From the NCBI RefSeq assembly GCF_000002425.4, contig NC_037257.1:9055524-9119523 (forward strand): a DNA stretch of 64,000 nt, written 5' to 3'. The stretch is from Physcomitrium patens (taxonomy: Eukaryota > Streptophyta > Bryopsida > Funariales > Funariaceae). The position numbers and the translations under genes are program-made. This document shows positions 2,401-58,630 of the stretch, in pieces (the first letter of the stretch is position 1; each line of letters opens with the position of its first letter). Below the pieces are notes generated by a model that saw only the letters and a program-made list of their open reading frames with translations, ran no database searches and was not told where the DNA came from.

Positions 2401-2686
2401 TATGGATTTCACTCCAACTCCTACCAGTGCATCTTCAACCAAATGGGAATCTCGAAAGAACATTTTCATTACATCGTTCTTTACATTTGCTTTTAAACGA
2501 ACTTTCACATCGACTATGAGGGACATATGGAATTGTGTGATCATGCAATACAAGTATTCACTTCATTTCCATGCAGACTTCACATCAAAGGTCGGCGAGT
2601 GCTCCGTAGTGAAATAATGCAGACAAACAAAAATCATGCCATGTATCCACACGCAGTCGAAATAAAGCCATCCATGAGCATCGTGC
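2401..2686. other. 3' flank of pectin methylesterase copy 1, unique to this copy
   Basis: Moderate-GC DNA that lies downstream of the minus-strand pectin methylesterase and shares no visible similarity with the flank of the second copy. Short open frames are present but none is recognisable. It is probably the remainder of the original 3' flank. Confidence 0.4.
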
Positions 2687-11178: not shown

Positions 11179-12505
11179 TGTCATATTCTAATACGAGTAT
11201 ACCATGAAAATATAAAGAAAAGAGACTTTTATTAATGTTCAATTACCTCGAATATTGGGAGCAACAACCAACTCCAATGCAAATACTGAGTGGCCAGGTT
11301 CAGTCACCCCATTACAGTCAGCCACGGCATACTGAAATGCTCCATTCGATTCCAGTAACGGAAGTCAGCAGGAAGAGAAAGGACCAATTCACACGACGGG
11401 TGAGCCTGGTTCGAAGAGCCAATTGGATCCAATTTCAAGAATCCAATCCGGGTCCTCTTACCCAATATGAGACCAGCATTTGTCGGGCAATCCAATGCAG
11501 TCTAATTACGGAAAAATCCAGGTCTTACTACGGGCCTCAGCCAGTCTGACGCGAAGGACCAATTTGATCCAATTACGGGAATATCTAGGTCTTACTACGG
11601 GCGTCTTAGCCAATGTGACGCGAGGACCAATTTGACCCAATTACGTGAACATCCAGGTTACTACGGGCATCTTACTCAATATGAAACCTGAATTGGTCGG
11701 GCGACTCAATGTGGATCCGAGTACGAGGTTCCGATTTTGTTTCAGGCTGTCCTATTCTCTGTGCCGTTTCAGGGAACGTTGTTTTCGGTAAATGGATCTC
11801 TTAAAGGTAAAAACGGAGGAGAAAGCTCTGACGGCGAGAGCCAATTTTGGATCTAAGCTCTGATGGTGGGAGCCAATTCCGGATCCAAGACGGAAGATTG
11901 AAGAAATTCAAAGGATAAGGTTAGAGGGAGAATAAGTTTTTGGGAGGTTTTTTGAAGATCGGGGGGAGAGGAGCTTCATGCTTCGGGCGTGGAAAGAAGA
12001 CAGAGAATTGGGTTTTTTTTCTTCATAGGATTTTGGGAAGACTGAGGCAATCATTGTTGAAGTTAGTGTTGTAATGGTGAATCGAGATTTTTAATGAAGT
12101 GGGTTTGATTACTCTTGACTGTTTTGTGAAATCGAGTTACGTCTGAGATTGAAGAATTAAAAGGGTGTCTATAGGATTGAGTATGCGGAGTGAATGAAAT
12201 TTATTGGGTTAATCTAACAAGACAGTTAGTGGATACAAGATTGTAAGTACAAAGTGGTATCGAAGATTAATAGTTTGGGTTATTCGAGGTTCTCTGTAAC
12301 GTTTAGAGACCTACCGGCTGGGACAAAAAGGACTTCGGCGAGCAGTCGAAGGGGCATCCGTATAGATTTACGATGAATTCTTGTAGTCGTTTATATTCTA
12401 ACAGTCAAAAACTGATAGACTGCTTGACTATTGGCGAATCTCCATACTACCTTCTACAGCCAGACGCGCGACGCGTTCTCGAGCAAGAAAGCACGTAATA
12501 CGACA
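11179..12505 (+). repeat. Left LTR of the 11179 gypsy element
   Basis: Starts TGTCATATT and ends AATACGACA, so the ends are inverted repeats. The end was placed by the primer-binding-site candidate 4 bp further on. It shares about 1.19 kb with the right LTR from 18486. Short imperfect repeats with AGGACCAATTTGA(T/C)CCAATTACG and TTACTACGGGC occur between 11470 and 11680. Confidence 0.85.
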
Positions 12506-12509
12506 AAAG

Positions 12510-12525
12510 TGGTGAACCCGACGTG
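12510..12525 (+). promoter_or_regulatory. Primer-binding-site candidate of the 11179 gypsy element
   Basis: TGGTGAACCCGACGTG lies 4 bp after the LTR end and begins with the TGG expected from pairing to a tRNA CCA tail. It is not the initiator-Met site TGGTATCAGAGC common in plants. Which tRNA it would pair with was not determined. Confidence 0.6.
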
Positions 12526-12575
12526 AAAGCTTGAAGTGGAAGATATTGGATTTCGGTTGATTTTATCTTTATTTT

Positions 12576-13825
12576 ATGGAAAACGAAAATAAAAATTTTG
12601 AAGTATTTTTGGGAGGAGTTTATAGTGGGGATTCTTCTAAAGGACAAGGTATGCACATGGATCCGTCTATTGCTAGTTTGTTTCAAGCCTTCTCATTATC
12701 AATGCAGCAACAACAAAGCAATGATCAAAAGGAAGCTTTGGTAACCAAAGCATTGCAAGCAATGGTCAATAAAATTGATCAATTTGATGGGAGGAATATT
12801 TCAAGGTATTTAAGTTGTTATATTCGTGAAATGGAATTAAATCGGGTTTCTGAGAAGAAAATGGTTGAACTATTTGGACTTGCCATGATACCAGAGATAA
12901 GAGACCACATTACATCGATTACGGATCGTTATGGAAATTCATAGGAGGTTTTTTTACATGCATTGAAAGACAAATATTTCTTGGAAGATGCTGATCGTGT
13001 TACTAAGAAGCTGTTTCTCGAATGGATTGAACGGCCCAATAAGAATTTGCAAGCAACAGAGCTACTAAAGGAATTTGAAAGGGAGTACTCTCAATTGTCA
13101 AAGGTAGAAAAATTGACATTGGAGCCGAACAAAGTTGATCTATTTCTTCAAGCTGCTGATGGAGAATTGCAAGAGAAATTAGAACTCCTTCTTGAAGACA
13201 AAGAAGAACATGAAGGATTGACAACGAAGTGGAAGAACGTTGAAGATGCAATGGGGTTGCTTACAAAAAGAGAAAGGAGGAAGGATGGGAGCAATATTCC
13301 GAAAATAGTACAAGCACCCAAAGCTCCAGTACATACAACACCACCAACAATGCCTACAGTTCAACCTTCAACATCCTTATCAAAGAAAGCAGTATGAAAA
13401 AAGAAGAAATTATACGAGGAATGCGAGATCTTCAAATCAAATTACCAAGACTTGAAGAGAATACTTCTACAAACAATTCAAAGAATGTTTCAAAACAAGG
13501 ATATGTACAAAGATGCATTTGGTGTGATGATGCTTCACACACTAGAAAAGATTGCAATGAATTTAATAATATGATATGGCAGGGAATTATTTGCTGGAAA
13601 GATGGAAAGATAGCATTAAAAAATAGAATGGATCTTCTTCAAACCAATTTTGGCAAGGGAGGAATGAGAGCATTGGTTCAAGATTACCTAAAAGAGCATG
13701 AAACAGCAACACGAGAAAGTGCAAGTTATGGTGCTAGAGTAGATGATGAAATTGGTGGAAGTACGGAAACTAGTGAGTTTTGGGCTTCTGCCGTTTCTAC
13801 AATGCAAGAAGGGAAATTACCTTGA
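12576..13825 (+). mobile_element. gag region of the 11179 gypsy element
   Basis: Begins at an ATG 51 bp after the primer-binding site. The encoded protein is rich in charged helices (capsid-like), followed by a proline/threonine-rich linker and a zinc knuckle CIWCDDASHTRKDC, i.e. C-x2-C-x4-H-x4-C, near 13520-13560. This layout is typical of gypsy Gag. It is part of a broken element. Confidence 0.75.
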
Positions 13826-14422
13826 GAAGTGTTATTGAGAACTGCAGCTACAATACGAGGAAGAATAGGTTGGGAGGATCCTGTTGAGTCTCTTTCAGTT
13901 CATGCATATATTGCTAAGAGCCAACATGAAGCTTTGATGGAAGAAAAAAGACGAGGAAATTTTGATGATACTAGAGAAGGAAATTCTTTTAAGAGGCAAA
14001 CTCGAGGAGACAAGGCTCGGGAGGCAACTTCACAAGAATTGCCTGTAAAGGATACCTCAGCATCATTGGGAGAAAAAACAACGGAGACAAAAGATAAGGG
14101 CAAATCAATTGCTTATAAGCTACTTTCTGACATTGAAGCGGCAACAAATTTGAAAGGGGTGTTGGAAGAACGTATATTAAACGCTAAGGTGGAATTCACA
14201 TTGAAAGAAGTCTTGGAAATTGCAAAGAAGGAGTTTCATGATGTTATCATTGACAGCATTAAGCGAAAGAGGCAATTAATGAGCGAAACTAGAATGAATC
14301 ATGCTATTGATGCAAGAATATGTAGAGATGAAGAAGAGGTTGATATTGGTTACAAGCAACCAACAAATGAAAAGAATGGGTATAATTAGCGAGTACGTTT
14401 CGAAGATTCTAGTGACAAGGAA

Positions 14423-14947
14423 ATGGAAACTTTGAGCCATTATACTCGAAAGCATTGGACAAGGGCAACTACTGAGGTATTGCTAAAGGTAGGAGATATA
14501 GAAGAACCAATTGTTGCTTTAGTCGACCATGGTTCTGAAATAAATCTCATGTCTAAATATCTTTATAAGAAGCAAAAATGGCCAATTGATATGGAACATG
14601 GATGGGTAATACGAGCAGTTAATAATACATGGAGCAAATTATATGGAGCTTGTCCAGATGTCAAAATTCGGATTGGGGATGTTGCGACGGAGCAACATTT
14701 CTTTGTTCAAGATACAACGTCTTATCTGTTGATTTTAGGACAACCTTATATCACGGCAACACGGATGGAAATAAAAGTACTTGACGATGGTTCTGCTTAT
14801 GCAAGGGTATGGAGCGAAGATGAGAGGAAAGCTGTACAATTTCTAACAGTACCTCCTAACCATGAACAGAATCGAGATAGGTTGAGGGAGAAACCATTGC
14901 CAAAGATTGTTGAAGGATTTAAGGATTTTGGGGAGGTACCACTGTAA
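14423..14947 (+). mobile_element. Aspartic protease region of the 11179 gypsy element
   Basis: Contains the retropepsin landmarks: LVDHGSEINLMS (the D-x-G-S type active site) near 14520 and later LLILGQPYI (the hydrophobic ILG flap-partner motif) near 14730. It lies between gag and RT, as expected. Confidence 0.8.
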
Positions 14948-15561
14948 AGCGAGATTATGGAGGTACAAAAGAGGAGGTACTCTCGCGAGATGAAGGTGCC
15001 TTTGATGCGAGTTTTATTGGTATATTGCAGAATGGAAATTTTATGTTTAAGAAAGTTGATGATTTTAAAAGAAGAGAAAGAAAAAGATTATATGATATTG
15101 AAGGACAATTATGCAAGTTAGGTACATTGCAAGATGATGAGAGGATTTTAGGTGTTTACGAAGAAAATGGACTGGAAGATTCATTGGAATTGATTACATC
15201 TATTGGGTTAAAGAATAATGATAAGATTGTTGAGATTCATTCAAGAGAGGTTTATACCATACTTGAATCTTTTCAAGCACAAAAAGTCACTGTAGAGATG
15301 AGATATAAAATGGCAGATAAGAAGATAAAGCCTGTTGCCGGACCATTACCAGAAGATTCTAAAGAAGAAATGGGAGAAGCATCAAAAGAAGCAAGTTTAA
15401 GACATCCAATGAGTATTGGACACCAGTTTACTAAAGAGACTTTTGAAGAATTGAAGATTGGTTTTGATGGTTCTTTATTACCGGAGGAAATTACTTGCTT
15501 CAAAAAGATGGTTGCTAAATAAGGTAGATCGTTTGCCTTCGAATCTCATGAAATTAGGTGT

Positions 15562-16338
15562 GTGGATCCAAATATTATAACACCTATGGTTATCTTCACT
15601 GTACCACATGTACCTTGGAATCTAAGACCGATTCCAGTACCGAGGACACATTTACCTAAATTGATTGAGCTTTTAAAAGAAAAGATAAAGATGAAAATAT
15701 TGGAACCCTCGTTTGCACCGTATTCTAGTCGATGGTTTACGGTACCTAAGAAGAATGGGTCACTATGGTTTATTCAAGATATGCAACCGGTGAATGCAGT
15801 AACTGTCAGAAATGTAGGAATTGGACCTATTGTGGATGAATTTACTGAGGCGTTTGCTGGAAGGGCGATCTATTCAATGGGTGACTTGTATTCAGATTAT
15901 GATCAATTTCAACTTACCGAAGGAAGTACAGATATGACAACGATGAGGACACCACTTGGATTGGTTAGAATGTGCACTCTTCCTCAAGGCGCGACCAACT
16001 CAGTTGCACATATGATGAATGGGATGAATAAGGTATTGAGAGATTTTATTCCGGAAAAGACTATGCCTTTTCTGGATGATGTTCCTATAAAAGGGTGCAA
16101 AGAAGGAGACAAGGATGAAACTTTAGATAAGAAGGGATGTCGCAAATATGTTGTTGATCATATACAAGATTGTGAAAAGATTTTAACTCGGCTTGGAGAA
16201 GTTCATCTTACATTATTGGGTATGAAGTCCATATTTGGAGTACGAGAGGTTGTAATTGTTGGACATTTATGTGGATCTTACGAAAGACAACCAGATCCGA
16301 CTAAAGTTGATGCAATTGGAAGGATGAAAGAGGATTGA
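15562..16338 (+). mobile_element. Reverse transcriptase region of the 11179 gypsy element
   Basis: The entry motif VPRTHLPKLIELLKEKIKM and SSRWFTVPKKNGSLWFIQDMQPVN correspond to RT motifs 1-2. FLDDVPIKG is the catalytic box, in the F-x-DD form seen in a subset of gypsy elements. TLPQGATNSVAHM matches the motif that precedes it in other gypsy RTs (PFGLINAPAVFQHM in the chromovirus). Confidence 0.85.
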
Positions 16339-16365
16339 GATTCTTTAATAGAGGTTCATAGGTTT

Positions 16366-16920
16366 TTGGGTGCATGTGTATTTTATCGAATCTGGATCCC
16401 TCATTTTGCTCACATAGCGAATCCATTATATGAACTGTTACACAAGGGCTACCGATTTAAATGGGAAGAAAGGCATATTCAGGCAATGCAAAGATTGAAG
16501 AAATTATTGATGTCACCTCCAATATTGAGGAAGGTTGATTATAAGTGCAATAGACCAGTGATTCTTACTGTGGACACTAGTCCAATTGCCATTGGATGGG
16601 CAATGGGTCAAGATGATTCAAGTGGAAATAGATTTGCAGTTCGATTTCGGGCTAAAGTTTTAAGTATTCGTCAACGTGCATATTTGCAAGTCAAAAGAGA
16701 ACTTTGGGAAGTTGTTTTGACTATGAAAGCTGAAAAGGACTATTTGATTGGGGCAGTAGTAGTAATTGAAACAGATTGCTTGCCATTGCTTGGAATTATT
16801 ATTAACTGTTCAATGCCAGATATTGCAATGTTGAGATGGATTGCTTATATTAAGTCACTAAATCCAGAATTTAAGCATGTTACTGGGAAGGACAATTTAG
16901 TAGCAGACATGCTATCTTGA
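16366..16920 (+). mobile_element. RNase H region of the 11179 gypsy element
   Basis: Follows RT. VILTVDTSPIAIGWAMGQ corresponds to the first RNase H strand (TDAS-like in other gypsy elements), REL(W)EVVL to the KELLA motif, and HVTGKDNLVADMLS to the terminal motif usually read as xGKxNxxADxLSR. Confidence 0.8.
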
Positions 16921-16944
16921 GCAAGATACAAGTGGGAGGACGAA

Positions 16945-18111
16945 ATGGTTGAAGACATTGATGACGTCGGATTGAAATTCTATTCAATATCAAATCTCAA
17001 CGGAGAAGACAAGCTATTTCTTGAAAAATCTTATGAAGGAGAATTATTGGATATTGGTCATTACTTGAATACCTTGACTAAGCAGGGGAATTGGTTTACA
17101 GAAAAATTCAAACAAATAAGAAAAAAGACATATGGATTTTTGCTTCGAGATGGATTCTTATGGAAGAGACCGAAGAAAGGAATTGGGATGCCACAACAAG
17201 TGATAGGCAAAAAGGAAGAAAAAGTAAAATTATTAAAAGAGTTTCATGATAGTTTATGGGCAGGGCATAGAGGAATCTGGGCTACTTTTGCTAAACTCAA
17301 GGAATGATATTGGTAGAAAAATATGTATCGAGATGTGCTCTCATTTGTAGAGTCATGTGAAATCTGTCAATCGTATTCTAATATCCGACATCGAGATGGT
17401 CTTCATCCTACGTATCCTCTGGCTATTCATTTTAAATGGGTTGTTGATTTGGTTATTATGCCGGTTGGGTTATGGCAAATGAGATATTTGGTTTTAGCTC
17501 GTGAAGATTTATCAAATCAAGTAGAAGGAAGAGCATTGAGGACAAAATCTACAGAGGGGATTTGTAGGTTTTTGCTTGAAGATGTCATTTGCCGCTACGG
17601 ATGCGTAGGAAAAATCACTGCAGATCGTGGAGAATTAAATGCACAAGAAGCTCGTAAGTTCTTTGAAAGATGTGGAGTTAAACTATCACTGAGTACTGCT
17701 TATAATCTAGAAGGGAATGCAAAAAGCGAACGCGGTCACCCACCGATTGTGAAAGCATTAGTTAAAGCTTGTAATGGGAAAGTTAAAGAGTGACCACGGT
17801 TTTTGTCATTTGCATTATGGGCTGATGGAACAACATATAGTTCGGTGACAGGATATATGCCAGTAGAACTTATGACAGGTCGAAAACCAATTATGCCGAT
17901 TGAAGAAAAGGTACTTACTTGGAGTATGCTACCATGGGAAGATGGATTGACAAGAGAAGAACTTTTGGCTATTAGGATTCGACAATTGAAGCAAATAACA
18001 GAAGATGTTCAAATAGCATTGGAAAGGTTAAAAAGAGCAAGGTTACAAAACAAGGCGCGATTCGATAAGCAACATCAATTAAGACCTAAAGCAATCGAAG
18101 AAAGTCACTAG
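16945..18111 (+). mobile_element. Integrase region of the 11179 gypsy element
   Basis: The zinc-binding N-terminus is visible as H-x-GHRG...C-x2-C (near 17245-17370). It is followed by the catalytic core with WVVDLVIMPVG, ITADRGELNAQEARKFFERCG and SLSTAYNLEGNAKSERGH, which parallel the D, D and E regions of retroviral integrases. An acidic C-terminal tail follows to about 18420. Confidence 0.8.
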
Positions 18112-18473
18112 GTACTTGTTTATGACAATAGTCTAGATAATAAACATATTGCTTTGTGAAAATTTTTAAAACGTTGGTTTGGACCATATGTGGTAACAAG
18201 TGTTCATGATAATATGACTTACTCGTTACGGGAGTTAGATGGTACAAAATTGAAAATACCAATTGCAGGAAAGCGAGTAAAAATATTTAAACGAATACAC
18301 GCAGAGATGAATATGAAAGACCTTAATGAAGGTATAGAGATCCCGCAGCAAGAAGATGAAAGTGATTTTAATAATGAAGGTGATGAAGACGAACTGGACA
18401 AAGACGTAGAGGATATATTTTGAATCAAACAGCAATTGGGTAAATTCCTGCATACCGGAGGATGCACAGGTTC

Positions 18474-18485
18474 AGAGGGGGTGGA
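18474..18485 (+). promoter_or_regulatory. Polypurine tract of the 11179 gypsy element
   Basis: AGAGGGGGTGGA lies directly before the TG of the right LTR at 18486, the expected place for plus-strand priming. Confidence 0.75.
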
Positions 18486-19673
18486 TGTCGTCTTGTAACA
18501 CGAGTATACCATGAAAATATAAAAAAAGGGACTTTTCTTAATGTTCAATTACCTCGAATATTAGGAGCAACAACCAACTCTAATGCAAATACTGAGTGGA
18601 CTGGTTCAGTCACCCCGTTACAGTCAGCCACGGCATACTGAAATGCTCCATTCGATTCCAATAACGGAAGTCAGCAGGAAGAGAAAGGACCAATTCACAC
18701 GACGGGTGAGCCTGGTTCGAAGAGCCAATTGGATCCAATTTCAAAAATCCAATCCGGGTCCTCTTACCCAATATGAGACCAGCATTCGTCGGGCAATCCA
18801 ATACAGTCTAATTACGGAAAAATCCAGGTCTTACTACGGGCCTCAGCCAGTCTGACGCGAAGGACCAATTTGATCCAATTACGGGAATATCTAGGTCTTA
18901 CTACGGGCGTCTTAGCCAATGTGACGCGAGGACCAATTTGACCCAATTACGTGAACATCCAGGTTACTACGGGCATCTTACTCAATATGAAACCTGAATT
19001 GGTCGGGCGACTCAATGTGGACCCGAGTACGAGGTTCCGATTTTGTTTCACGCTGTCCTATTCTCTGTGCCGTTTCAGGGAACGTTGTTTTCGGTAAATG
19101 GATCTCTTAAAGGTAAAAACGGAGGAGAAAGCTCTGACGGCGAGAGCCAATTTTGGATCTAAGCTCTGACGGTGGGAGCCAATTCCGGATCCAAGACGGA
19201 AGATTGAAGAAATTCAAAGGATAAGGTTAGAGGGAGAATAAGTTTTTGGGAGGTTTTTTGAAGATCGGGGGGAGAGGAGCTTCATGCTTCGGGCGTGGAA
19301 AGAAGACAGAGAATTGGGTTTTTTTTCTTCATAGGGTTTTGGAAAGACTGAGGCAATCATTGTTGAAGTTAGTGTTGTAATGGTGAATCGAGATTTTTAA
19401 TGAAGTGGGTTTGATTACTCTTGACTGTTTTGTGAAATCGAGTTACGTCTGAGATTGAAGAATTAAAAGGGTGTCTATAGGATTGAGTATGCGGGGTGAA
19501 TGAAAATTTATTGAGTTAATCTAACAAGACAGTTAGTGGATACAAGATTGTAAGTACAAAGTGGTATCGAAGATTAACAGTTTGGGTTGTTCGGGGTTCT
19601 CTGTAACGTTTAGAGACCTACCGGCTGGGACAAAAAGGACTTCGGCGAACAGTCGAAGGGGCATCCGTATAGA
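18486..19673 (+). repeat. Right LTR of the 11179 gypsy element
   Basis: Starts TGTCGTCTT and follows the left LTR with a few percent difference up to about 19673. There it meets LTR sequence of the next chromovirus; three bases (AGA, 19671-19673) fit either element. Confidence 0.85.
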
Positions 19674-19819
19674 GTTCTTCAGTCTCGACAACGCATCTCT
19701 TGAAGCTCTAGCTCAATTCTCTTGCCGTTGCTCTTGTACTCATCTGTTTGATCTAGTTCTTGTCATTTCTTCTTGAAATTCTTGTTTAGATTTCTTGTTT
19801 GTAATTTTGGTCCGTGACA
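19674..19819 (+). repeat. 5' LTR sequence of the plus-strand chromovirus
   Basis: Matches the last part of the LTR at 25412-25885 with about ten differences by eye and ends TCCGTGACA. It contains the predicted transcript-start motif AGTCTCGACAAC at 19681-19692. Confidence 0.85.
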
Positions 19820-19833
19820 GTTTGTCGAGACTG
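19820..19833 (+). promoter_or_regulatory. Self-priming type primer-binding site of the chromovirus
   Basis: GTTTGTCGAGACTG begins at the first base after the LTR. Its inner 11 bases TTGTCGAGACT are the exact reverse complement of AGTCTCGACAA in the LTR (19681 and 25748), which is where transcription should start, 32 bp after the TATA box. This arrangement is known from Tf1 and related chromoviruses, whose RNA 5' end folds back to prime reverse transcription. The minus-strand sister copy has the same site at 30773-30786. Confidence 0.75.
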
Positions 19834-19843
19834 CCTTTATCTT

Positions 19844-20218
19844 AATATCAGAGCTGAATCCTTCTTGTTTGAGAGCGGATTACCCCTCTTCTTGAAGGTA
19901 TTCTAGTGCTTTAGGGATTGCGGATTACCTTCCTCTAAACTGATATTTTCTCAATCACAATATCAGAGCTTAGTTCTTTGAGGCAGAGAGTGGACTACCC
20001 CTTTCCTTGGAGATACTTGAGCGTTCTAAGGGTTGCGGATTACCCTCTCTTGGACTGATATTAAATCCTTCTTTTTGTTTAGCATAGCTAGTTGGAAAAG
20101 ACTGTTAATATCGATTTCAGAGCTTTGCCTTCTTGATAGAGTGCAGATTACCCCTCTTCTTGAAAGCATTGAGGCATTTTTAGAGATTGCAGATTACCCT
20201 CCTCTAAAACTGAAATCG
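19844..20218 (+). repeat. Three ~104-bp leader units closed by inverted repeats
   Basis: The units are 19844-19947, 19959-20062 and 20112-20218. The first two open with AATATCAG and close with CTGATATT; the third opens with CGATTTCAG and closes with CTGAAATCG. The closing arms are perfect reverse complements in every unit although the sequence changes. Each unit has AGAGCT overlapping or directly after the opening arm (AGCT in all three) and two GGATTACC-like boxes inside, one followed by CCTCTT and one by TCCTCTAA. The block lies between the primer site and the gag ATG at 20341, so it should form a structured RNA leader. Confidence 0.8.
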
Positions 20219-20340: not shown

Positions 20341-21306
20341 ATGGAAGTAGACCATGTCATAGACAGTGCATCTCCACAAGTAGACAATAGAGTGGCAACT
20401 CTTGCAGATCTTCAAGCTCTTATGAATAGTGTACGAAAGGAGATTGCATTTCTTCGCAATCCAAGTAAAGAACCTCAAATTGATCTAGTGACCGAAGAAG
20501 CTAGACGCGAAATTCATAGCCTACAACAAGAGATTATTCGACTGAGAGAAGCAAGACATGTGTCACATACGACCCCTATAGATACTTCAAGGATTAGTAC
20601 GAAAGAACCAAAAGCGAGTATGCCAGATAAGTTTGACGGAACAAGAGCCAACTTCCGAGGTTTTGTGCAACAAGTACGGCTTTACCTACGCCTATATCCT
20701 TCTCGTTATCCGAATGGATTTACCCAGGTTGCTTTCATAGGTACTCTTCTATCAGGAAATGCTCGCTCTTGGTTTGCTCCACTATTGGAGAAGGATTCTC
20801 CAATATTGTACGTCCTAGAGGCTTTCATAGAGAGACTTACTGCTGCGTTTGGAGATAGCGATCGAGAAAGAGTGGCTGAAAGAAAGATACAAAATCTGCG
20901 ACAAGGATCACGTTCTGCTGCAATCTATGCTGCAGAATTTCAATAGCTTACATGTGATCTTGATTGGAATGATAAGGCGTTCATGACACGATTTTGATAT
21001 GGACTGAGAGATGATGTCAAGAACTTATTGATCACCATGCCTAAGGCAGATACTTTAGAAGAACTTATATCTCAGGCAATTATTTGTGACAACCGCCTCT
21101 TTGAATTACGACAAGAAAGACGATCAGGCTGGAGAAATGATGGAGCATTTGCTACATTTTCAAAAGGTCCAGAGAATCACTCCACAGATCCTGATCCATG
21201 CAAATTGATGCGGTACATTTCAAACCCCTCACAGTTGAGGAAAGGAAGTGACGGTTTGAACAAAACTTGTGTTAATATTGTGGAGAAGCGAGCCATAAAG
21301 CTGTAG
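20341..21306 (+). mobile_element. gag region of the plus-strand chromovirus
   Basis: Begins at the ATG after the leader. The N-terminal part has a coiled-coil-like stretch, then the capsid motif PDKFDGTRANFRGFVQQV followed by FIGTLLSGNARSWFAPLLE, which is the typical Ty3/gypsy capsid (retrotrans_gag) signature. It is part of a broken element. Confidence 0.85.
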
Positions 21307-21307
21307 A

Positions 21308-21784
21308 TTGTCGGAAGAAACAGAAGCCTCAAACAACAAGACTCAGGAGTACAAGCATGCAGGAAAACAAGGACGTCGAGCCACAATAGGGACCGTGCGG
21401 CTGGACATCTCAACATCCAAAATTAATCAAGGTTCCTTTCTCTTAGCTCAACCTTCAGATTGTTTTATAGTACCTTTACATCTGGGTATTCAAGAACTAC
21501 AAGTCGATGCTTTATTAGACTCGGGTGCATCCGCTTGCTTTATAGATGAAGAGTTTGCCAAGCTTCACAATATTTCTCTTGTAAAGAAACTTAAGCCTGT
21601 CCATGTAGAAGTCATAGACGGACGACCATTGTCTTCGGGCAATGTTATCCATGAAACTAAACCATTGAAGGTACGTCTTGAAAACCATGAGAGCAATATT
21701 GTGTTTAATGTTATCAAGACCCCTTCATGTCCTATCATTTTGGGACTATCTTGGCTTGATAGATATAATCCATTGATAGATTGA
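21308..21784 (+). mobile_element. Aspartic protease region of the plus-strand chromovirus
   Basis: ALLDSGASACFIDEEFA is the retropepsin active site (D-S-G-A) and PIILGLSWL is the later ILG motif, spaced as in other gypsy proteases. It lies between gag and RT. Confidence 0.88.
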
Positions 21785-21787
21785 AAG

Positions 21788-23371
21788 TTGCGGAAAGTGA
21801 CATTTCCAACAAACTCCTTGAAGGTGGAATCTGCCAAGACAATGTCTAGAAATAAATCCTTGTTTATAGATACAAGGGCTTTCATGAAGGAAGCCAAGCA
21901 AAATACACCTCTTGTCATCTTCGCAACTCCGACTCGAGAAGATGCAACTCCGACTTTGGTTATTCCAAAGCAGTATGAAGAATTCAAAGATGTCTTTGAA
22001 AAGAAGAATGCTGATATGCTGCCAGAGCATCGACCCTATGATTGTGCCATTGAATTGCAAGAAGGAGCACAACCACCTTTTGGACCAATCTACAATTTGT
22101 CGCAGACGGAGTTGACTGAGTTGCGGAAGTACATTGACGAGAATCTAGCCAAGAACTTCATCCGTCATTCGAAGTCGCCAGCTGGGGCACCAATCTTATT
22201 TGTGAAGAAGAAAGATGGCTCACTACGGATGTGCGTGGACTATCGAGGTCTCAACAAGGTGACAAAAAAGAATCGCTATCCACTGCCTTTGATCTCTGGT
22301 CTTCTAGAACAACTTGGGCATGCAAGGATCTTTACAAAGATTGACCTAAGGGGAGCTTACAACCTTGTGCGAATCAAGGAAGGAGATGAATGGAAGACAG
22401 CTTTCCGAACAAGGTATGGCCATTTTGAATACAATGTCATGCCATTTGGTCTTATTAATGCTCCAGCGGTCTTTCAACACATGATGAATGACATCTTTCG
22501 AGAGCATCTAGACGATTTTGTTGTCATCTATCTAGATGATATTTTGATATTTTCTAAGAACGAGGAAGAACATGAGAAGCACATTCGTCTGGTACTCAAA
22601 AAACTACGGGAGCGAGGACTCTATGCCAAATTGGAGAAGTGCTTATTTCACCAAACTGAAATGGAGTTTTTGGGATTCATCGCGACTATGGAAGGATTGA
22701 AGATGGATCCAAAGAAGGTGGAAGCAATCATGTCTTGGGAAGTTCCAAAGACGGTTAGGGACGTACAATGTTTTCTTGGATTTGCTAACTACTATCGGAT
22801 CTTCATCAAGAATTATTCTCAAGTTGCTGCCCCCCTCACTCGGTTAACGTGCAAGGACAAGCTCGAATGGGGACCTATCGCAGAAAAAGCATTCCAAGAT
22901 TTGAAGATGGTATTTACTACAACTCCAATCTTGGTACATCCGGACTTTACAAAGGCCTTTTATTTGGAGACAGATGCTTCGGATTTTGCTTTGGGAGCTG
23001 TACTTTCACAGATGGGCGTAGATGAAAAGCTCCATCTAGTTGCGTTCCATTCTCGAAAATTCTCTGCTGCTGAGATCAACTATGAGATCCACGATAAGGA
23101 ACTCCTTGCTATAGTAGATTCTTTCCAAGAGTGGCGCCACTTTCTCGAAGGAACTGCACATCCAGTGACCGTATATACGGATCACAAGAATTTGGAGTAT
23201 TTTATGTCGGCTCGGGTTTTGAATCGGCGTCAAGCTCGGTGGAGTATGTCGCTATCCAAGTTCAACTTTGTTATAACTTATCGGCCTGGGAAGCAACAAG
23301 GGTTGTCCGATGCATTATCGAGGAGATCATATCTCGCACCAAAGGTTGGAGATGCAGCATTTGATCAATAG
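21788..23371 (+). CDS. Reverse transcriptase-RNase H segment of the plus-strand chromovirus (element fossil)
   Basis: An open segment of 527 residues. RT motifs: [60 protein letters not shown] and the catalytic box [11 protein letters not shown] near residues 250-260, then FLGFANYYRIFI. RNase H follows with [37 protein letters not shown] and the terminal GKQQGLSDALSRR. This is a standard Ty3/gypsy pol order. It is part of a broken element, so it is listed as a segment and not as a working gene. Confidence 0.9.
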   Translation: MRKVTFPTNSLKVESAKTMSRNKSLFIDTRAFMKEAKQNTPLVIFATPTREDATPTLVIPKQYEEFKDVFEKKNADMLPEHRPYDCAIELQEGAQPPFGPIYNLSQTELTELRKYIDENLAKNFIRHSKSPAGAPILFVKKKDGSLRMCVDYRGLNKVTKKNRYPLPLISGLLEQLGHARIFTKIDLRGAYNLVRIKEGDEWKTAFRTRYGHFEYNVMPFGLINAPAVFQHMMNDIFREHLDDFVVIYLDDILIFSKNEEEHEKHIRLVLKKLRERGLYAKLEKCLFHQTEMEFLGFIATMEGLKMDPKKVEAIMSWEVPKTVRDVQCFLGFANYYRIFIKNYSQVAAPLTRLTCKDKLEWGPIAEKAFQDLKMVFTTTPILVHPDFTKAFYLETDASDFALGAVLSQMGVDEKLHLVAFHSRKFSAAEINYEIHDKELLAIVDSFQEWRHFLEGTAHPVTVYTDHKNLEYFMSARVLNRRQARWSMSLSKFNFVITYRPGKQQGLSDALSRRSYLAPKVGDAAFDQ

Positions 23372-23380
23372 TGCACGACA

Positions 23381-24868
23381 TTGTTGAAGCCAGAGAAATT
23401 TCAGCTCAACGCAGCTATTGTACCAATTGATGCAGACTTCCTCGACCAGATATGGGCCGCAACCATTGAAGATTCTCTAGCCCTTGATATCAAGCAACAT
23501 GCTAGTGATGATAAATTCAAGATGGAAGGAGATCTAGTATATTTCGAAGAGCGGTTGTATATCCCAAAAGGGCCAGCACGACTCCGAGTTCTTCAATCTC
23601 GTCATGACTTCTCAGCTGCGGGACATTTTGGATTCAATAAGACCTTAGAACTTATTTCCCGCGATTTCTGGTGGCCTCAAATGTGGAAGGATGTGAAAGA
23701 TTTTGTTGTATCTTGTGACATTTGTTCAAGATCCAAAAACCCTCGACATCGGCCTTATGGACTTCTACAGCCATTGCCTATTCCGCGCCGACCATGGTCT
23801 TCGGTTTCTATGGACTTTATTACGGATCTACCACCATCGAATTCATTTGACAACATTTTTGTTGTCGTAGACCGGCTTACAAAGATGGCACATTTTGTCC
23901 CTTGCAAGAAGACATCGTCAAGCGAAGACACAGCAAGACTCTTTCTTGATAATGTGTATCGATATCATGGTCTACCAGATGATATCGTATCGAATCGAGG
24001 AACCCAGTTTGTGTCAAAGTTTTGGAAATCTCTTTTTGAGATATTGAAGGTGGATATCAAGCTTTCTTCGGCATTTCATCCTCAAACGGATGGCCAAACA
24101 GAACGGGTGAATCAAGTTTTAGAGCAATATTTACGTTGCACCATCAACTATCAACAAGATGATTGGGTCGCATATCTACCGCTAGCTGAGTTCGCATATA
24201 ACAACACCCTTCATGCGTCAACTCAACAAACGCCATTCTTTTCCAATTATGGATACCATCCGAAGCTTGACTTATGTAGTTCGTCAACGATTAACAATTC
24301 GACAGCTGAAGGATTGGTGAAGGAGCTTTTGCAGCTTCAAACTACATTGAAGCTTCAATTGCAAACTGCCCAAGAATCTTACAAGGCGTCCGCGGACAAA
24401 TTTCGGAATCAGGCACCTAAATTCACGATTGGAGACAAAGTTTGGCTGCTTCGACGAAATATTAAGACCAAGCGGCCATGTGACAAATTGGACTATCGGA
24501 GATTGGGACCATTTGTTATCCAGAAGCAGATCAATCCTGTAGCGTATCGTCTGGAGTTACCAGCTACTATGAACGTACATCCTGTCTTTCATGTTTCTTT
24601 GTTGGAGCCTTATCAAGAATCGTCTTTTCCTGGAAGAGTACAATGTCCACCACCTAGCATAGAAATAGAGAACCACGAAGAATACGAGGTGGAAAAGGTC
24701 CTGGATTCACGGCAAAGACGGGGTAAATTAGAATACTTTGTGCATTGGAGTGGTTACGATATTAATGAACGAACATGGGAGCCGGCCGAAAATCTCGCGA
24801 ATGCGCCGCAAAAGGTACAGGAGTTTTATCAACGATATCCTGAGAAACCCAAGCCGGTTCGACGATAG
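23381..24868 (+). CDS. Integrase-chromodomain segment of the plus-strand chromovirus (element fossil)
   Basis: An open segment of about 495 residues. Residues 75-115 are the HHCC zinc-binding domain, ending C-DI-C. The DDE catalytic core follows with [22 protein letters not shown] and [17 protein letters not shown]. The GPF/Y-type module is seen as [14 protein letters not shown], and a C-terminal chromodomain occupies about residues 429-486 ([27 protein letters not shown]). Chromodomains bind methylated histone tails and steer integration, so this protein would have targeted heterochromatin, in keeping with the nested insertions here. Confidence 0.92.
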
Positions 24869-25411: not shown

Positions 25412-25450
25412 TGTTAGGGACATAGTCCTTAGACCTTTCTAGAGACAAGT

Positions 25451-25682
25451 TTCTAGAACCTTCTAGAAAGAAGTGTCTAGAAACTTCCAGAAGATTCCTT
25501 GAATATTCTCTTAGAATATTCTTCAAAGATTCCCTAAAGATTCTTTGAAGATTCTCTAAAGATTCTCTTAGAAGGCTCTAGAAGATTCTTAGAATATTCT
25601 AATAGATTCTAAAAAGTTACTTGAGAAGCTTCGTAGCTCTTAGGTAGTTGCTCGAGAAGCTTCATAGTTCTTGGGAAGCTTC
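25451..25682 (+). promoter_or_regulatory. Cluster of heat-shock-element motifs in the LTR U3
   Basis: Alternating GAA/TTC 5-bp units are the binding site of heat-shock factors. Seen here: TTCTAGAACCTTCTAGAA (25451-25468, four units), GAAACTTCCAGAAGATTC (25480-25497, four units), then GAAnnTTC pairs at 25501, 25514, 25547, 25581, 25592, 25625, 25656 and 25675. All lie upstream of the TATA box at 25716. The sister LTR has two four-unit arrays at 30998-31015 and 31027-31044. Confidence 0.7.
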
Positions 25683-25715
25683 TTGATGCGCTTCCTTAGA
25701 ACCATAGGCCAGTAG

Positions 25716-25724
25716 TATATATAA
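25716..25724 (+). promoter_or_regulatory. TATA box of the chromovirus LTR
   Basis: TATATATAA lies 32 bp before AGTCTCGACAAC at 25748, the normal plant TATA-to-start distance. That start fits the complementarity with the primer site at 19820. Confidence 0.75.
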
Positions 25725-25885
25725 GAGTCGAGGCTGAAGAGTTCTTCAGTCTCGACAACACATCTCTTGGAGTTCTAGCTCACCTTTCTGGTGTTGTTCT
25801 TGTACTCATCTGTTTAATCTAGTTCTTGTCATTTCTTCTTGAAATTCTTGTTTAGATTTCTTGTTTGTAATTTTGGTCCGTGACA

Positions 25886-30542: not shown

Positions 30543-30759
30543 AATATTGGTTTAGAAGATGGTACTCCGCAACCTCTAAAACGCCTTAAGAGCTTCAAGA
30601 AAAGGGGTAATCTACTCTCTCCAAGAAGAATAAGACTCCAATATTATAACAAAAGAAGTATTAGTTTAGAGGAGGGTAATCCGCAACCTCTAAATTGCTA
30701 GTACACCTTCAAGCAGAGGGATAATCCACACTCTAACGAAGAAGAAACTAGCTCTAATA
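30543..30759 (-). repeat. Two leader units with inverted-repeat ends in the outer chromovirus
   Basis: The units are 30543-30645 (AATATTGG...CCAATATT, 8 bp) and 30659-30759 (TATTAG...CTAATA, 6 bp). They are homologous to the three leader units of the plus-strand copy, with the same internal boxes, but the closing arms have different sequences that still pair. Confidence 0.75.
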
Positions 30760-30772
30760 TCTGAGGTGAATG

Positions 30773-30786
30773 CAGTCTCGACAAAC
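30773..30786 (-). promoter_or_regulatory. Self-priming type primer site of the outer chromovirus
   Basis: The reverse complement is GTTTGTCGAGACTG, directly next to the 5' LTR, identical to 19820-19833. Confidence 0.72.
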
Positions 30787-31083
30787 TATCACGGACACAG
30801 AAATACAAGCTCAAGATCTAACAAGAAGTTCAAGAAGAACTGACAAGAACTAGATTAATCAGATGAATAGAAGAACAACACCAAAGAGGTAAGCTAGAGC
30901 TCCAAGAGATGTGTTGTCGAGATTGAAGAACTCTTCAGCCTTGATTCCAATATATACTCCTATTTAAGAAGCTTCTCAAGTAACTTCCATCAACTAGGAA
31001 GCTTCTAGAAGGTTCCAGAGACTTGCTTCTAGAAGGTTCTAGAAACTTGTTTCTAAAAGGTTCTAAAGACTATGTCCCTAACA
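30787..31083 (-). repeat. 5' LTR of the outer chromovirus
   Basis: 297 bp, reading TGTTAGGGACATAG...GTCCGTGATA on the minus strand. It contains the four-unit heat-shock motifs at 30998-31015 and 31027-31044. The start motif region is at 30913-30924. Confidence 0.88.
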
Positions 31084-41508: not shown

Positions 41509-41869
41509 TAACGTTGGGTTTTAGTTCGAAATCAAAATGATCTAAACTGACGTGATGGACGCTCATCTCGGTGGTAGCGGTTGGTCTGTGCTAAGGCGGT
41601 GAAGTGTTGGGGATTGTTTCATGTCCGAATCTGGTGACGACGATGCCGTTTGGGTAGGAAACAGTACTGTCGATTGCACGAAGTCTGGATCATCGTGTTC
41701 AGCTTATTTTTTGCGTATAGGTTTATGACATTATGTCGTTGTGTAGGCACTGTACCAGTTCGCATCATGCTCAGGTACATCACATTTTGTCGGCCTGGAA
41801 ACAATGATATATCTGTGTGTCCATATTCTCGCAGTTTGACCTCTCATTCACATAACTGTTTAGGTTGTC
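41509..41869. other. Moderate-GC flank of pectin methylesterase copy 2
   Basis: Unlike the flank of copy 1. No recognisable gene; it leads into the gypsy fossil that follows. Confidence 0.35.
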
Positions 41870-50914: not shown

Positions 50915-51311
50915 TGTCACGGACACAGAATACAGACTTGATATCTACCAAGAAGTTCAAGAAGAACTAGCAAGAATTAGATTAATCAAATGAATACAAG
51001 AACAACACCAGAGAGGTGAGCTAGAGCTCCAAGAGATGTGTTGTCGAGACTGAAGAACTCTTCAGCCTCGATTCCAATATATACTCCTATTTAGGAAGCT
51101 TCTCAAGCAACTTCTACCAACTAGGAAGCTTCTAGAAGGTTCCATAGACTTGTTTCTAGAAGGTTCTAGAAACTTATCTTTCGAAGGTTCTAAGGACTAT
51201 GTCCCTAACATCTTCTACCAACTAAGAAGCTTCTAGAAGGTTCCAAAGACTTGCTTCTAGAAGGTTCTAGAAACTTATCTCTAGAAGGTTCTAAGGACTA
51301 TGTCCCTAACA
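50915..51311 (-). mobile_element. Solo LTR of the younger chromovirus family, partly duplicated
   Basis: The minus-strand LTR reads TGTTAGGGACATAG...GTCCGTGACA over 50915-51210; positions 51211-51311 repeat its U3 end in tandem. Flanks GTAAT (50910-50914) and ATAAT (51312-51316) resemble a target-site duplication with one difference. It has the start motif at 51040-51051 and several TTCTAGAA heat-shock motifs. No internal sequence is present, so it is a solo LTR left by recombination. Confidence 0.8.
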
Positions 51312-55644: not shown

Positions 55645-58630
55645 ATTTTATCATACTTCTTTGAAAAATTCTCACTTTTTTTTTTTTTTTTATTAAGTCC
55701 TTATTCTTGACAAATTGACAAGAGTACACTTATAATATCAAAGCTTTTTTTTTTTTTTTTTTCATTAAGAGTGGATTACTTTTTTTCTTGATAATACATA
55801 AGCATATCAGAAGTTTCATATTATCTTCTTTTAAATTGATATTTTTTTTAATATTTTTTCTATTCTCAAGTTCTTTTTTTACTTGTCTTGAGCAATATTA
55901 GACATCTCTTTTTTTCTAAGTATCATTATGATAGAGCTTGTCAAAATAAGAGTGCAATGGTACAAATGCAAGAATAATTGAGAAAGTTAATGCTTACAAT
56001 GTATCAAGTCAATTTATCATGACAAGAAAAAAAAAGAATGATAAAAAATATAAATATAGAAATAATTGAAGTTGCTTTAACATCTGCCTCAAATCATGTT
56101 TTTTTTTACATAGTCAATCACCATTCAAATGCTAAAAAACCAAAAATTGCTTTATTTGAAAAATGTGATGGTATATGATCAAAATTTTAAGGATTCATCA
56201 ATCAAATACATTTGGCAATTGAACTTCAATCCCAAAGCTATTCAACTTCAAGATCACAAGTCAAATTTATTGAAATACTATATTTTGGTTTTGCATTATC
56301 ATAATTTTTATTTTTTTTAAATAATATGATCTAATATTGGATAATTTAAAAGCTTTCTTAGCATAGTTTTAATCTATATATAGAAAATATAATATAATAT
56401 ATATTACAAAAAAATAAGATTTATATTTTTTAATAAAAAAATTAATTTATAATATTACATACTTTAAAATTTTGATAACTTGTAATTGATATCAAGTAGA
56501 ATGATATTATACTTATTAATTAATTTTTTTATAGATTATTATATAAAATAAAAAAATTAATTCTTAATAAAGTTGATCCTCAAACATTGAGTCAAGCAAT
56601 TGATTTTATTATAAAATGTGATAATTGATTTTTTGAATTTTAATTTGAAAATTATAACATTAAAATTATTACAATTTAATGGAAATACTATTGTCTTTTC
56701 AATACATTCCTTTGCAAGTAGAGGATATGAAAATTGATGCAATACATTTTAAACTTCTTACTAAGCAAGAAAAGACTCGTCATCATAAAAAAGGATTGTG
56801 TTTAAATTGTAGAAAATCAAAGCATACTACTCAACATTTTTCAAAGAAGCAATGCAATAATAAAATAAAAAATAAAACTATGAAAGAAGACAATATATTA
56901 GAAAAAAAGTTTGTCCATCTATAATAGAGATCAGGTGATTGGAACCTTTTACAATACCTAATAAAGGTCCTATTCTCTCTTTAGAATCTTTTTATTTTAT
57001 TTTACAATAGTTGTTAATTTAGGATCTAAACATCTCAAAACCTCTATCTTACTAGATTGAAGAACCTTAACTTATTTATTAAATGAAGAATTTGTTAAAA
57101 GACATAATATATCTTTAATAAAGAAAATAAAATCTATTCATATAAAAGTCATAGATAGTCATTTATTATCGTCTAGAGACATTAATTATAAAATATCTCT
57201 ACTGAAAGTAATAACAAAAAATTATAATAGCTTTGTGGTATTTAGTATCATTAGATTTTTTTTAATCTAATTATTTTAAATTTATTATGATTGAAAAAGT
57301 ACAATCTTTAAATAGATTAAATTTCTTATAGTCTTAAATTTTTTTTTAAAATATAACTAAGAATGTAATTAATCAAGTAAAAAGTCATAAGTCTAGTACA
57401 ACCAAATTTATATTTATTAGTATAAGAGCTTTTTTACATGCTGCAGCAAAAGAATCACCTTGTGTCATTTATGCCACACTTATTTTTAATGGTAAAAAGA
57501 CTTGAAATCACATTTCTAGCCAATAGCAAGATTTTAAAGATATATTTGTAAAGAAGAATGTAGATACTCTTTTAAATCATTATTCCTATGATTCTTCAAT
57601 TCACCTTCAAGAAGGAGTTCAATTGCCATTTGGATCAATCTACAATTTATCACAAAATGATTTGGCTAAATTAAAAGAATATATTGAAGAGAATCTAGCT
57701 AAGAACTTCATATATCATTTCAAATTTCTAACAAGAGCTCTAATTTTATTTGTAAAAAAGAAAGACAGATCATTGCAAATGTATATCAATTATTGAAGAC
57801 TCAAAAAGATTACCAGCAAAAATAAGTTTTTTCTACCTTTTATATTTGGAATTCTACATCAATTAAATCAAACTAAGATCTATAAAAAAAAATAGATCTA
57901 TAAGGGATATGTAATCTAATATATATCAAAGATAGAGATGAATGAAGACGTCATTTTGAACCAAGTTGGACATTTTAAAAATAATGTCATGCCTTTTAGA
58001 CTTACAAATGAACTAATAGATTTTCAACATCTAATGAATGATGTCTTTTGAAATTTTTTAGATGATTTTATTATCTATTACCTAAAAAATATTTTAATCT
58101 ATTCTAAGAATGCAAAAGAATATAAATTTCATATTTGTCATGTATTACAAAAACTAAAAGATGCAAGATTCCATGCTAAGATAGAAAAGTGTGTATTTCA
58201 TATTACTTAAGTCAACTTCTTAGGATACATTATTTCAAATGATGGATTTGTAATAGATATTAAGAAAGTTCAAACTATTATGGATTGAAAGATCTCAAAA
58301 ATAATAAAAGATGTTCAATGTTTTTTGAGATTTATCAACTATTATTGGATCTTCATCAAAGTCTTTTCAAGTTGTAGCTCCACTTATATGTCTGACTTCT
58401 AAAGATAAACTTCAATAGAATCAAGAAGCAAAAGTAGCATTTGAAGCTTTGAAAAAAACCTTTATTTTGGCACTAATCTTGTATTGCATTGATTTTTTTA
58501 AACCATTTTTTATGAAAATAGAAGCATCAAAAATTTGCTTTAGATGTTGTATTATTTCAAATAGGAACAAATGATAAACTTCACTTAGTAGCTTTTCATT
58601 CCAGAAAAGTTTTAGTAGCCAATATTATAA

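What the first reader, a model, noticed from the sequence alone, without database searches (positions are those of the whole stretch)
19844..20218. Leader hairpin array with compensatory changes in the closing stems
Three ~104-bp units lie between the primer site and gag. Two close with AATATCAG/CTGATATT and the third with CGATTTCAG/CTGAAATCG. In the sister copy the two units close with AATATTGG/CCAATATT and TATTAG/CTAATA. All five stems differ in sequence in part, yet all pair perfectly. That pattern is hard to get without selection for structure, which points to an RNA element (packaging, translation start or dimer signal) or to a DNA-level hairpin. The number of units differs (three against two), so the array expands and contracts. 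I know of no described family of such leader repeats.
Basis: seen in the sequence. Interest (0 to 1): 0.88.

Follow-up and report, generated by a model that had tools for sequence, protein, structure and literature searches.

The report
Repeated RNA junctions in retrotransposon leader
A very abundant family of jumping genes carries, just ahead of its first gene, one to three copies of a folded RNA module whose shape is kept by selection while its letters change, probably a handle by which the element's own coat protein recognises its RNA.

Summary
Three units (19844-20218) and two in the inverted sister copy lie between the primer-binding site and gag of a Ty3/gypsy chromovirus. The element looks self-primed like Tf1: 11 bases at the putative RNA start pair with the binding site, with compensatory differences between lineages. 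The own genome holds 3,861 matches to a two-loop pattern, 0 to its reversed control. Lineages carry one, two or three units. Over 16 units, 91.9% of stem cells pair (42-54% when slid); 13 of 27 pairs change on both sides; 10 double-change events against 1.4 expected (maximum 5 in 1000 tree-based simulations). G-U exceeds A-C, pointing to sense RNA. Nine leaders hold 1 AUG, about 59 expected: ribosomes probably scan through. Best reading: a modular Gag-recognition (packaging) signal beside the self-primer; the packaging role is inferred. Against: in whole-leader folds the closing stems of units 1 and 2 of three-unit leaders are outcompeted, an older lineage lacks a clear closing stem, and an all-pairs covariation test singles out no predicted pair.

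The parts
19677..19819 (+). Remnant of the 5' LTR (R-U5 part) of element A; the rest was cut off by insertion of another LTR element
   Evidence: 92.6% identity of 19671-19819 to 25738-25885; sequence
19680..19691 (+). Putative RNA 5' end (C)AGTCTCGACAA, self-primer; in intact copies about 30 nt after a TATATA box
   Evidence: 12/12 inverted match to 19822-19833; TATA spacing seen in other copies; 11-nt duplex in most copies
19822..19833 (+). Primer-binding site TTGTCGAGACT(G), complementary to the element's own RNA 5' end
   Evidence: pair probabilities 0.56-0.99 in the folded leader
19844..19947 (+). Unit 1 of the array, three-way junction
19959..20062 (+). Unit 2 of the array
20112..20218 (+). 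Unit 3 of the array, different closing stem
20341..20946 (+). 5' part of gag of element A (open frame of 201 aa)
   Evidence: DUF4939 7.4e-11, Retrotrans_gag 1e-07; no ATG between 19680 and 20341
21270..21311 (+). CCHC zinc knuckle of Gag, with a stop codon inside it in this copy
21788..23371 (+). Reverse transcriptase / RNase H open frame
   Evidence: RVT_1 8e-40, RT_RNaseH 4.1e-37
23381..24868 (+). Integrase open frame with chromodomain
   Evidence: SH3_Tf2-1 5.5e-21, Integrase_H2C2 8.1e-20, Chromo 7.4e-17
25412..25885 (+). 3' LTR of element A (TGTTAG...GTGACA); ends set by eye
   Evidence: sequence, matches to other LTRs
30787..31083 (-). 5' LTR of the sister element S; ends set by eye
30773..30784 (-). 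Primer-binding site of S (its self-primer is 30914-30925, one mismatch)
   Evidence: pair probabilities 0.00-0.41 in the folded leader of this copy
30658..30760 (-). Unit 1 of the sister array
30543..30645 (-). Unit 2 of the sister array
   Evidence: closing-stem probability 0.98-1.00 in the folded leader
55735..55842 (+). Decayed AT-rich relic of one unit
   Evidence: R1 covariance model E 3e-06 for 55728-55849; profile E 1.1e-07

Best explanation
The array is a modular, sense-strand RNA element in the 5' leader of a self-priming Ty3/gypsy chromovirus. Each unit is a three-way junction that presents two hairpin loops with the core GGAUUACC, in which the guanosines are unpaired or weakly paired in the predicted folds. 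The most likely job is to be bound by the zinc knuckle of the element's Gag, so that full-length RNA is collected into particles and held next to the self-primer duplex, where reverse transcription would start about ten nucleotides upstream of the first unit. Units duplicate and are lost, so 1, 2 or 3 (2, 4 or 6 loops) are present; stems drift but must stay paired, loops are kept. Shown here: structure under selection, strand, position, unit number, loop conservation, 11-nt self-priming complementarity, Gag with a CCHC knuckle, scanning-compatible leader. Inferred: the RNA start, Gag binding, packaging, and any help to priming.
For: Covariation: 13 of 27 pairs changed on both sides, 0 of 500 shuffles as high, slid controls far lower; 10 double-change events at 9 pairs against a null mean of 1.36 and maximum of 5 in 1000, summed covariation 86.6 against a null maximum of 40.1. 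A P1 stem closing two arms is found by single-sequence folding in 25 of 26 cluster representatives, the arms partly shifted in three of them. G-U 35 cells against A-C 10; 0 of 2000 shuffles reach that ratio. P3 loop: three positions invariant in 45 of 45 distinct hairpins, while one stem position shows four standard pair types. Array after the self-primer site and before gag in the lineages read (L112 is a rearranged exception). 11-nt self-primer duplex exact in 50 of 85 loci, in three sequence versions. CCHC knuckle motif in 24 of 30 A-like loci (two with a stop inside) and 16 of 30 S-like loci. From papers (passages seen): the HIV-1 core packaging signal is a tandem three-way junction with exposed or weakly paired guanosines needed for NC binding, and MoMuLV NC with a single zinc knuckle binds exposed UCUG (PMC7599994).
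Against: No binding, probing or packaging data exist here. In whole-leader folds of the three-unit leaders the closing stem of unit 1 and of unit 2 reaches probability 0.5 in 0 of 26 each, and in the window copy the end of unit 1 pairs with the start of unit 2; unit 3 does so in 24 of 26; in two-unit leaders unit 1 in 10 of 41 and unit 2 in 39 of 41; in one-unit leaders 4 of 6. The older lineage Y keeps the two hairpins but no closing stem that I could make out. Few independent lineages: only two of 27 pairs are significant singly (E 0.0025 and 0.036). In the all-pairs test on 26 units the only pair under E 0.05 (columns 15-64, E 0.022) is one column off a predicted pair; the predicted pairs 14-64 and 7-106 stand at E 0.82 and 0.87, and an unrelated pair at 0.067 ranks above them. 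The fetching patterns contained the loop motif, so loop conservation is partly built in; units not chosen by it (unit 2 of A, S2, Y1) do vary: GGACTACC, GGAGTACC.
Confidence: 0.5

Rival explanations
1. The array is chiefly a platform for starting reverse transcription: it holds the U5 region and the self-primer duplex in the right shape (like the structures around the Tf1 primer) and has no role in packaging.
For: It starts about 10 nt after the primer-binding site in the window copies and lies close behind it in the lineages read; the self-primer duplex is itself strongly predicted in A and exists in three compensating versions.
Against: The number of units varies from 1 to 3 although the geometry of priming should be fixed; the most conserved part is loops, not the stem next to the primer site.
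Confidence: 0.2
2. The array regulates translation or the fate of the RNA: it slows scanning, binds a host protein, or shifts RNA from translation to packaging.
For: It lies in the leader just before gag; nine A/S/X leaders have 1 ATG against about 59 expected from base composition, so the leader is probably read through by scanning ribosomes.
Against: AUG avoidance alone shows only that the leader is scanned; it argues against an internal ribosome entry site. No host partner is known.
Confidence: 0.17
3. A dimerisation element: loops or cross-unit stems pair between two RNAs.
For: In the three-unit leader the closing arms of units 1 and 2 are identical and can swap partners.
Against: The loop GGAUUACC is not self-complementary and no GGTAATC occurs in element A or S; the closing arms of the two units of S differ from each other.
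Confidence: 0.08
4. A DNA-level feature (hairpin or recombination-prone tandem repeat) without an RNA role.
For: Tandem repeats with inverted arms can arise and persist by replication slippage; unit number varies. As single-stranded DNA three of the five units fold as far below shuffles as they do as RNA (z -2.58, -3.14, -2.72).
Against: Conserved pairing with drifted letters and G-U excess over A-C on the sense strand; as DNA the other two units are at chance (z -0.03 and -0.74), while as RNA all five are low.
Confidence: 0.05

Closest known systems
Tf1/sushi group of self-priming Ty3/gypsy chromoviruses
   Same: Primer-binding site complementary to the element's own RNA 5' end over 11 nt (as in Tf1, PMC7175516, passages), chromodomain, Tf2-1-type SH3 domain in integrase
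   Different: No tandem junction array was met in the passages on Tf1 that I saw; the structural paper on Tf1 that I asked for is not held
HIV-1 core encapsidation signal (tandem three-way junction)
   Same: Three-way junctions in the 5' leader, with loosely paired guanosines (PMC7599994, passages)
   Different: No sign of homology; here whole ~105-nt modules are duplicated and their number varies
MoMuLV packaging signal
   Same: Short NC-binding sites that recur in the leader; Gag with a single zinc knuckle (PMC7599994, passages)
   Different: Different motif (UCUG) and architecture
Ty3 leader and packaging region
   Same: Ty3/gypsy relative; signals lie at the structured 5' end (PMC11381356, passages)
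   Different: tRNA-primed; its packaging sequences are described as not precisely defined
Sirevirus repeated motifs
   Same: Repeated symmetric motifs in non-coding parts of an LTR retrotransposon (PMC2829016, passages)
   Different: They sit in the LTR upstream of the TATA box and are read there as promoter-type DNA elements

Membership tests
Tf1/sushi self-priming chromoviruses | RNA 5' end complementary to the primer-binding site over 11 nt | tested here: met
   Exact in 50 of 85 loci L001-L085, one mismatch in 26, more in 9; versions AGTCTCGACAA/TTGTCGAGACT (46), ACTCTTGTCAA/TTGACAAGAGT (3), AATCTCGACAA/TTGTCGAGATT (1); the 12th position pairs in only 12 of the 50
Tf1/sushi self-priming chromoviruses | Chromodomain at the end of integrase | tested here: met
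   Chromo 7.4e-17 and SH3_Tf2-1 5.5e-21 in 23381-24868
Tf1/sushi self-priming chromoviruses | RNase H cut that frees the primer | not testable with these tools
   needs biochemistry; the transcription start is also only inferred from the TATA spacing
Retroviral-type packaging signal | Conserved structured RNA in the 5' leader near the primer site | tested here: met
Retroviral-type packaging signal | Gag with a CCHC zinc knuckle | tested here: met
   motif in 24 of 30 A-like and 16 of 30 S-like loci; not looked for in X and Y, whose loci are too short
Retroviral-type packaging signal | Specific binding by Gag/NC and enrichment in particles | not testable with these tools
   no binding data
Internal ribosome entry site | Ribosomes need not scan the leader, so upstream AUGs are tolerated | tested here: not met
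   1 ATG in nine A/S/X leaders, about 59 expected; 13 in six Y leaders, about 46 expected
Any curated Rfam family | Match at the gathering score | tested here: not met
   0 matches in the window

The most novel reading that the evidence does not exclude
A modular RNA recognition signal of tandem three-way junctions, each with a pair of like loops, has evolved in self-primed chromoviruses independently of the retroviral packaging signal, and the element tunes the number of Gag-docking loops by duplicating or losing whole modules.
Probability: 0.4. Interest if true: 0.8.

Novelty: new variant of a known kind. Interest (0 to 1): 0.62.

Why it matters
Packaging signals of Ty3 are described as not precisely defined (PMC11381356, PMC4974528; passages). 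A small, repeated, covariation-backed module with a kept loop gives a testable candidate in a self-primed relative, and a natural series of 1, 2 and 3 copies. It would also be a case of convergence with the tandem three-way junction of HIV-1.

Tried and rejected
DNA-only reading: lowered by the G-U/A-C asymmetry and by covariation, though three of five units also fold well as DNA. A private-versus-shared version of the G-U test within lineages was not decisive: among shared one-sided changes from Watson-Crick pairs 16 were G-U and 10 A-C, among private ones 29 and 18. Loop pairing elsewhere: no complement of the loop (GGTAATC) in A or S. Prokaryotic or viral relatives: pattern scans of viral contigs gave 7, 1 and 24 stretches, and of genome contigs 115, capped, 80 listed; by my own rough estimate, for which no control was run, these are chance numbers. 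Model R1 on all 8 of the first two scans and on 100 of the rest (24 viral, 76 prokaryotic) found nothing below E 0.079. A protein scan of viral contigs with the reverse transcriptase frame found no relative. Organism: two ribosomal RNA patterns gave no match, so it is not identified; it looks fungal to me, which is a guess. A substitution spectrum was spoiled, probably by misaligned copies, and is not used. Alignment A2 had badly placed rows and was not used. Whether short gag-less derivatives keep the array was not tested: similarity searches scored only the best 40 candidates and pattern searches list only the first places.

Full report
What is there. The window is G000:C5:9055524-9119523 of an unnamed 470-Mb assembly. 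Element A, on the plus strand, is a Ty3/gypsy LTR retrotransposon: gag frame from 20341, reverse transcriptase/RNase H at 21788-23371, integrase with Tf2-1-type SH3 domain and chromodomain at 23381-24868, 3' LTR 25412-25885. Its 5' LTR is cut at about 19676 by another LTR element at 11179-19676, whose two LTRs of about 1.19 kb are 97.6% identical. A sister copy, S, lies inverted at 31083-25890; the two are 78.3% identical over 3.8 kb. Both copies are broken by stop codons.

Primer site. CAGTCTCGACAA at 19680-19691 is the exact complement of TTGTCGAGACTG at 19822-19833, just after the LTR end. In other copies the first set stands about 30 nt after a TATATA box, so it is likely the RNA 5' end. 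Over loci L001-L085 the duplex is exact over 11 nt in 50, has one mismatch in 26 and more in 9 (12 of 85 are exact over 12). Beyond the 11 nt it mostly stops: the 12th position pairs in only 12 of the 50. Three versions occur: AGTCTCGACAA/TTGTCGAGACT (46), ACTCTTGTCAA/TTGACAAGAGT (3, lineage X) and AATCTCGACAA/TTGTCGAGATT (1). Several Y copies also carry the X version. [quoted passage not shown] The real RNA start was not measured, and the S copy in the window has a mismatch and only modest pairing probability there (0.00-0.41).

The unit. As single-stranded DNA the z-scores are -2.58, -0.03, -3.14, -2.72 and -0.74. The two loops share the core GGAUUACC with few changes. A decayed relic of one unit lies at 55735-55842. 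Units of A and S are 74-82% identical in the three comparisons made, about as much as the LTR part next to them (83%) and more than the first 600 bases of gag (63%).

Copies and lineages. A pattern of two loop cores 25-45 bases apart has 3,861 matches in the genome against 0 for the reversed pattern. Of 30 A-like loci 30 have three units and of 30 S-like loci 30 have two. These are the 30 best-scoring loci of two searches, so this shows constancy within close families only. The 20 loci taken by the loop pattern (L066-L085) have two units in 12, one in 7 (lineages X3 and X4) and four in one, L082, which holds two leaders in a row; L110, fetched later, also has one. An older lineage, Y (21 of the 22 loci L094-L115), has two loop-bearing hairpin pairs in most copies but no closing stem that I could make out. 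Model R1 matches all 21 Y loci, E from 4e-16 to 0.0073; it reports the match over the whole model, but I did not look at how P1 aligns.

Covariation. 202 units above 60 bits gave 140 distinct sequences and 26 clusters at 94%; five weaker matches of 207 were dropped before this. Of the 26 representatives 25 fold with P1 closing two arms; L055 does not, and in L076, L079 and L083 an arm is partly shifted. On 16 units, one for each lineage and place as chosen by me, with 27 pairs: 91.9% of 432 cells paired, slid partners 42.4-54.1%; 13 pairs with changes on both sides, slid at most 7; 42 such cells, slid at most 13; covariation score 0.363, shuffled 0.203, 0 of 500 as high. The structure was drawn from these units, which favours it over slid versions. 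The helix nearest the first loop (P2c) has no both-sided change and so gives no support. Because lineages are few I also put the substitutions back at random along the tree: 10 double-change events at 9 pairs against a mean of 1.36 and maximum of 5 in 1000; the summed score 86.6 against a maximum of 40.1; two P1 pairs significant alone (E 0.0025 and 0.036 over 27 pairs). The harder all-pairs form on 26 units has little power and singles out no predicted pair: columns 15-64 (E 0.022) are one off the predicted 14-64 (E 0.82), an unrelated pair follows at 0.067, and P1 pair 7-106 has 0.87. I read this as a lack of lineages, not as absence of structure, because the structure-wide tests are so far from their nulls. 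This is a home-made form of the R-scape idea, not R-scape.

Strand. On the 16-unit cells there are 35 G-U and 10 A-C; shuffling gives means of 49 and 22, and 0 of 2000 shuffles reach the observed ratio. That is the mark expected of structure in the sense RNA. Within families, shared and private changes do not differ in this ratio (16:10 and 29:18), so that comparison adds nothing.

Loops. In 45 distinct P3 hairpins (51 taken: 16 units, 19 Y first units, 16 Y second units; three Y second units were missed by my pattern) three of 14 loop positions never vary and 7 of the other 11 are at 80% or more, while stem position 4/25 occurs as A-U 19, G-C 17, G-U 6 and U-A 1. Here 88.6% of stem cells pair against 47.5-73.0% slid, with 6 pairs and 30 cells changed on both sides; the best slid versions reach 6 pairs (7 cells) and 20 cells (4 pairs), so the P3 hairpin alone is a weaker case. 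Loci chosen by the loop pattern bias loop conservation upward.

Results against a simple picture. Folding whole leaders, the closing stems of units 1 and 2 in the three-unit leaders never reach 0.5 probability (0 of 26 each); in the window copy the end of unit 1 pairs with the start of unit 2. The last unit does reach it in 24 of 26. For two units: 10 of 41 and 39 of 41; for one unit: 4 of 6. So either the first units switch partner, or protein or folding during transcription decides, or the model energies mislead.

Function. From the putative RNA start to gag there are 0 ATG in A (661 nt) and S (419 nt); nine A, S and X leaders have 1 against 59.4 expected from base composition, six Y leaders 13 against 45.5 (of 16 tried, L077 had no recognisable start). 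The gag start was placed by me at the first ATG of the gag frame, which makes the count a little circular. Ribosomes thus probably scan through the array, which speaks against an internal entry site. The CCHC knuckle of Gag is found in 24 of 30 A-like loci (two with a stop inside) and 16 of 30 S-like loci; X and Y were not examined. The place next to the primer site, the repeated loop with loose guanosines and the knuckle resemble retroviral packaging signals: the HIV-1 core signal is a tandem three-way junction with exposed or weakly paired guanosines needed for NC binding (PMC7599994, passages). I give the Gag-recognition reading about one in two. Help to priming, control of translation and dimerisation are the rivals.

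Known or not. No Rfam family matches in the window. Nine answered paper searches, seen as listings with starts of abstracts, show no description of such an array; the library holds open-licence papers only, and I opened passages of five papers. Relatives in other species of the host's kind could not be searched here.

Noticed in passing
window 2679-5272 and 38904-41516: Inverted pair of 2.6-kb segments, 99% identical, each holding an open frame that matches pectinesterase (PF01095, 1.3e-59), in otherwise AT-rich, transposon-filled DNA.
   Followed up: no
window 11179-19676: A second LTR element of 8.5 kb with 1.19-kb LTRs (97.6% identical), lying in the LTR of element A.
   Followed up: no
putative transcription start, L068, L069, L094: Perfect inverted repeat of 11-13 bp around the putative RNA start in 3 of 8 copies tried, the upstream arm resembling the primer-binding site; A/S copies show by eye a near-perfect version with another sequence.
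   Followed up: partly
window 51108-51311: LTR of the same family with a 103-bp direct repeat, 94% identical.
   Followed up: no
L112, minus strand: A Y-type second unit sits directly behind a reverse-transcriptase-like coding stretch instead of a leader: a rearranged copy.
   Followed up: no
L082: Two leaders of one family about 0.8 kb apart, as if one copy had inserted into the gag of another.
   Followed up: no
L196 1334-1580: Three evenly spaced matches of the loop pattern in a Ruminococcus contig, perhaps a repeat in a gene.
   Followed up: no
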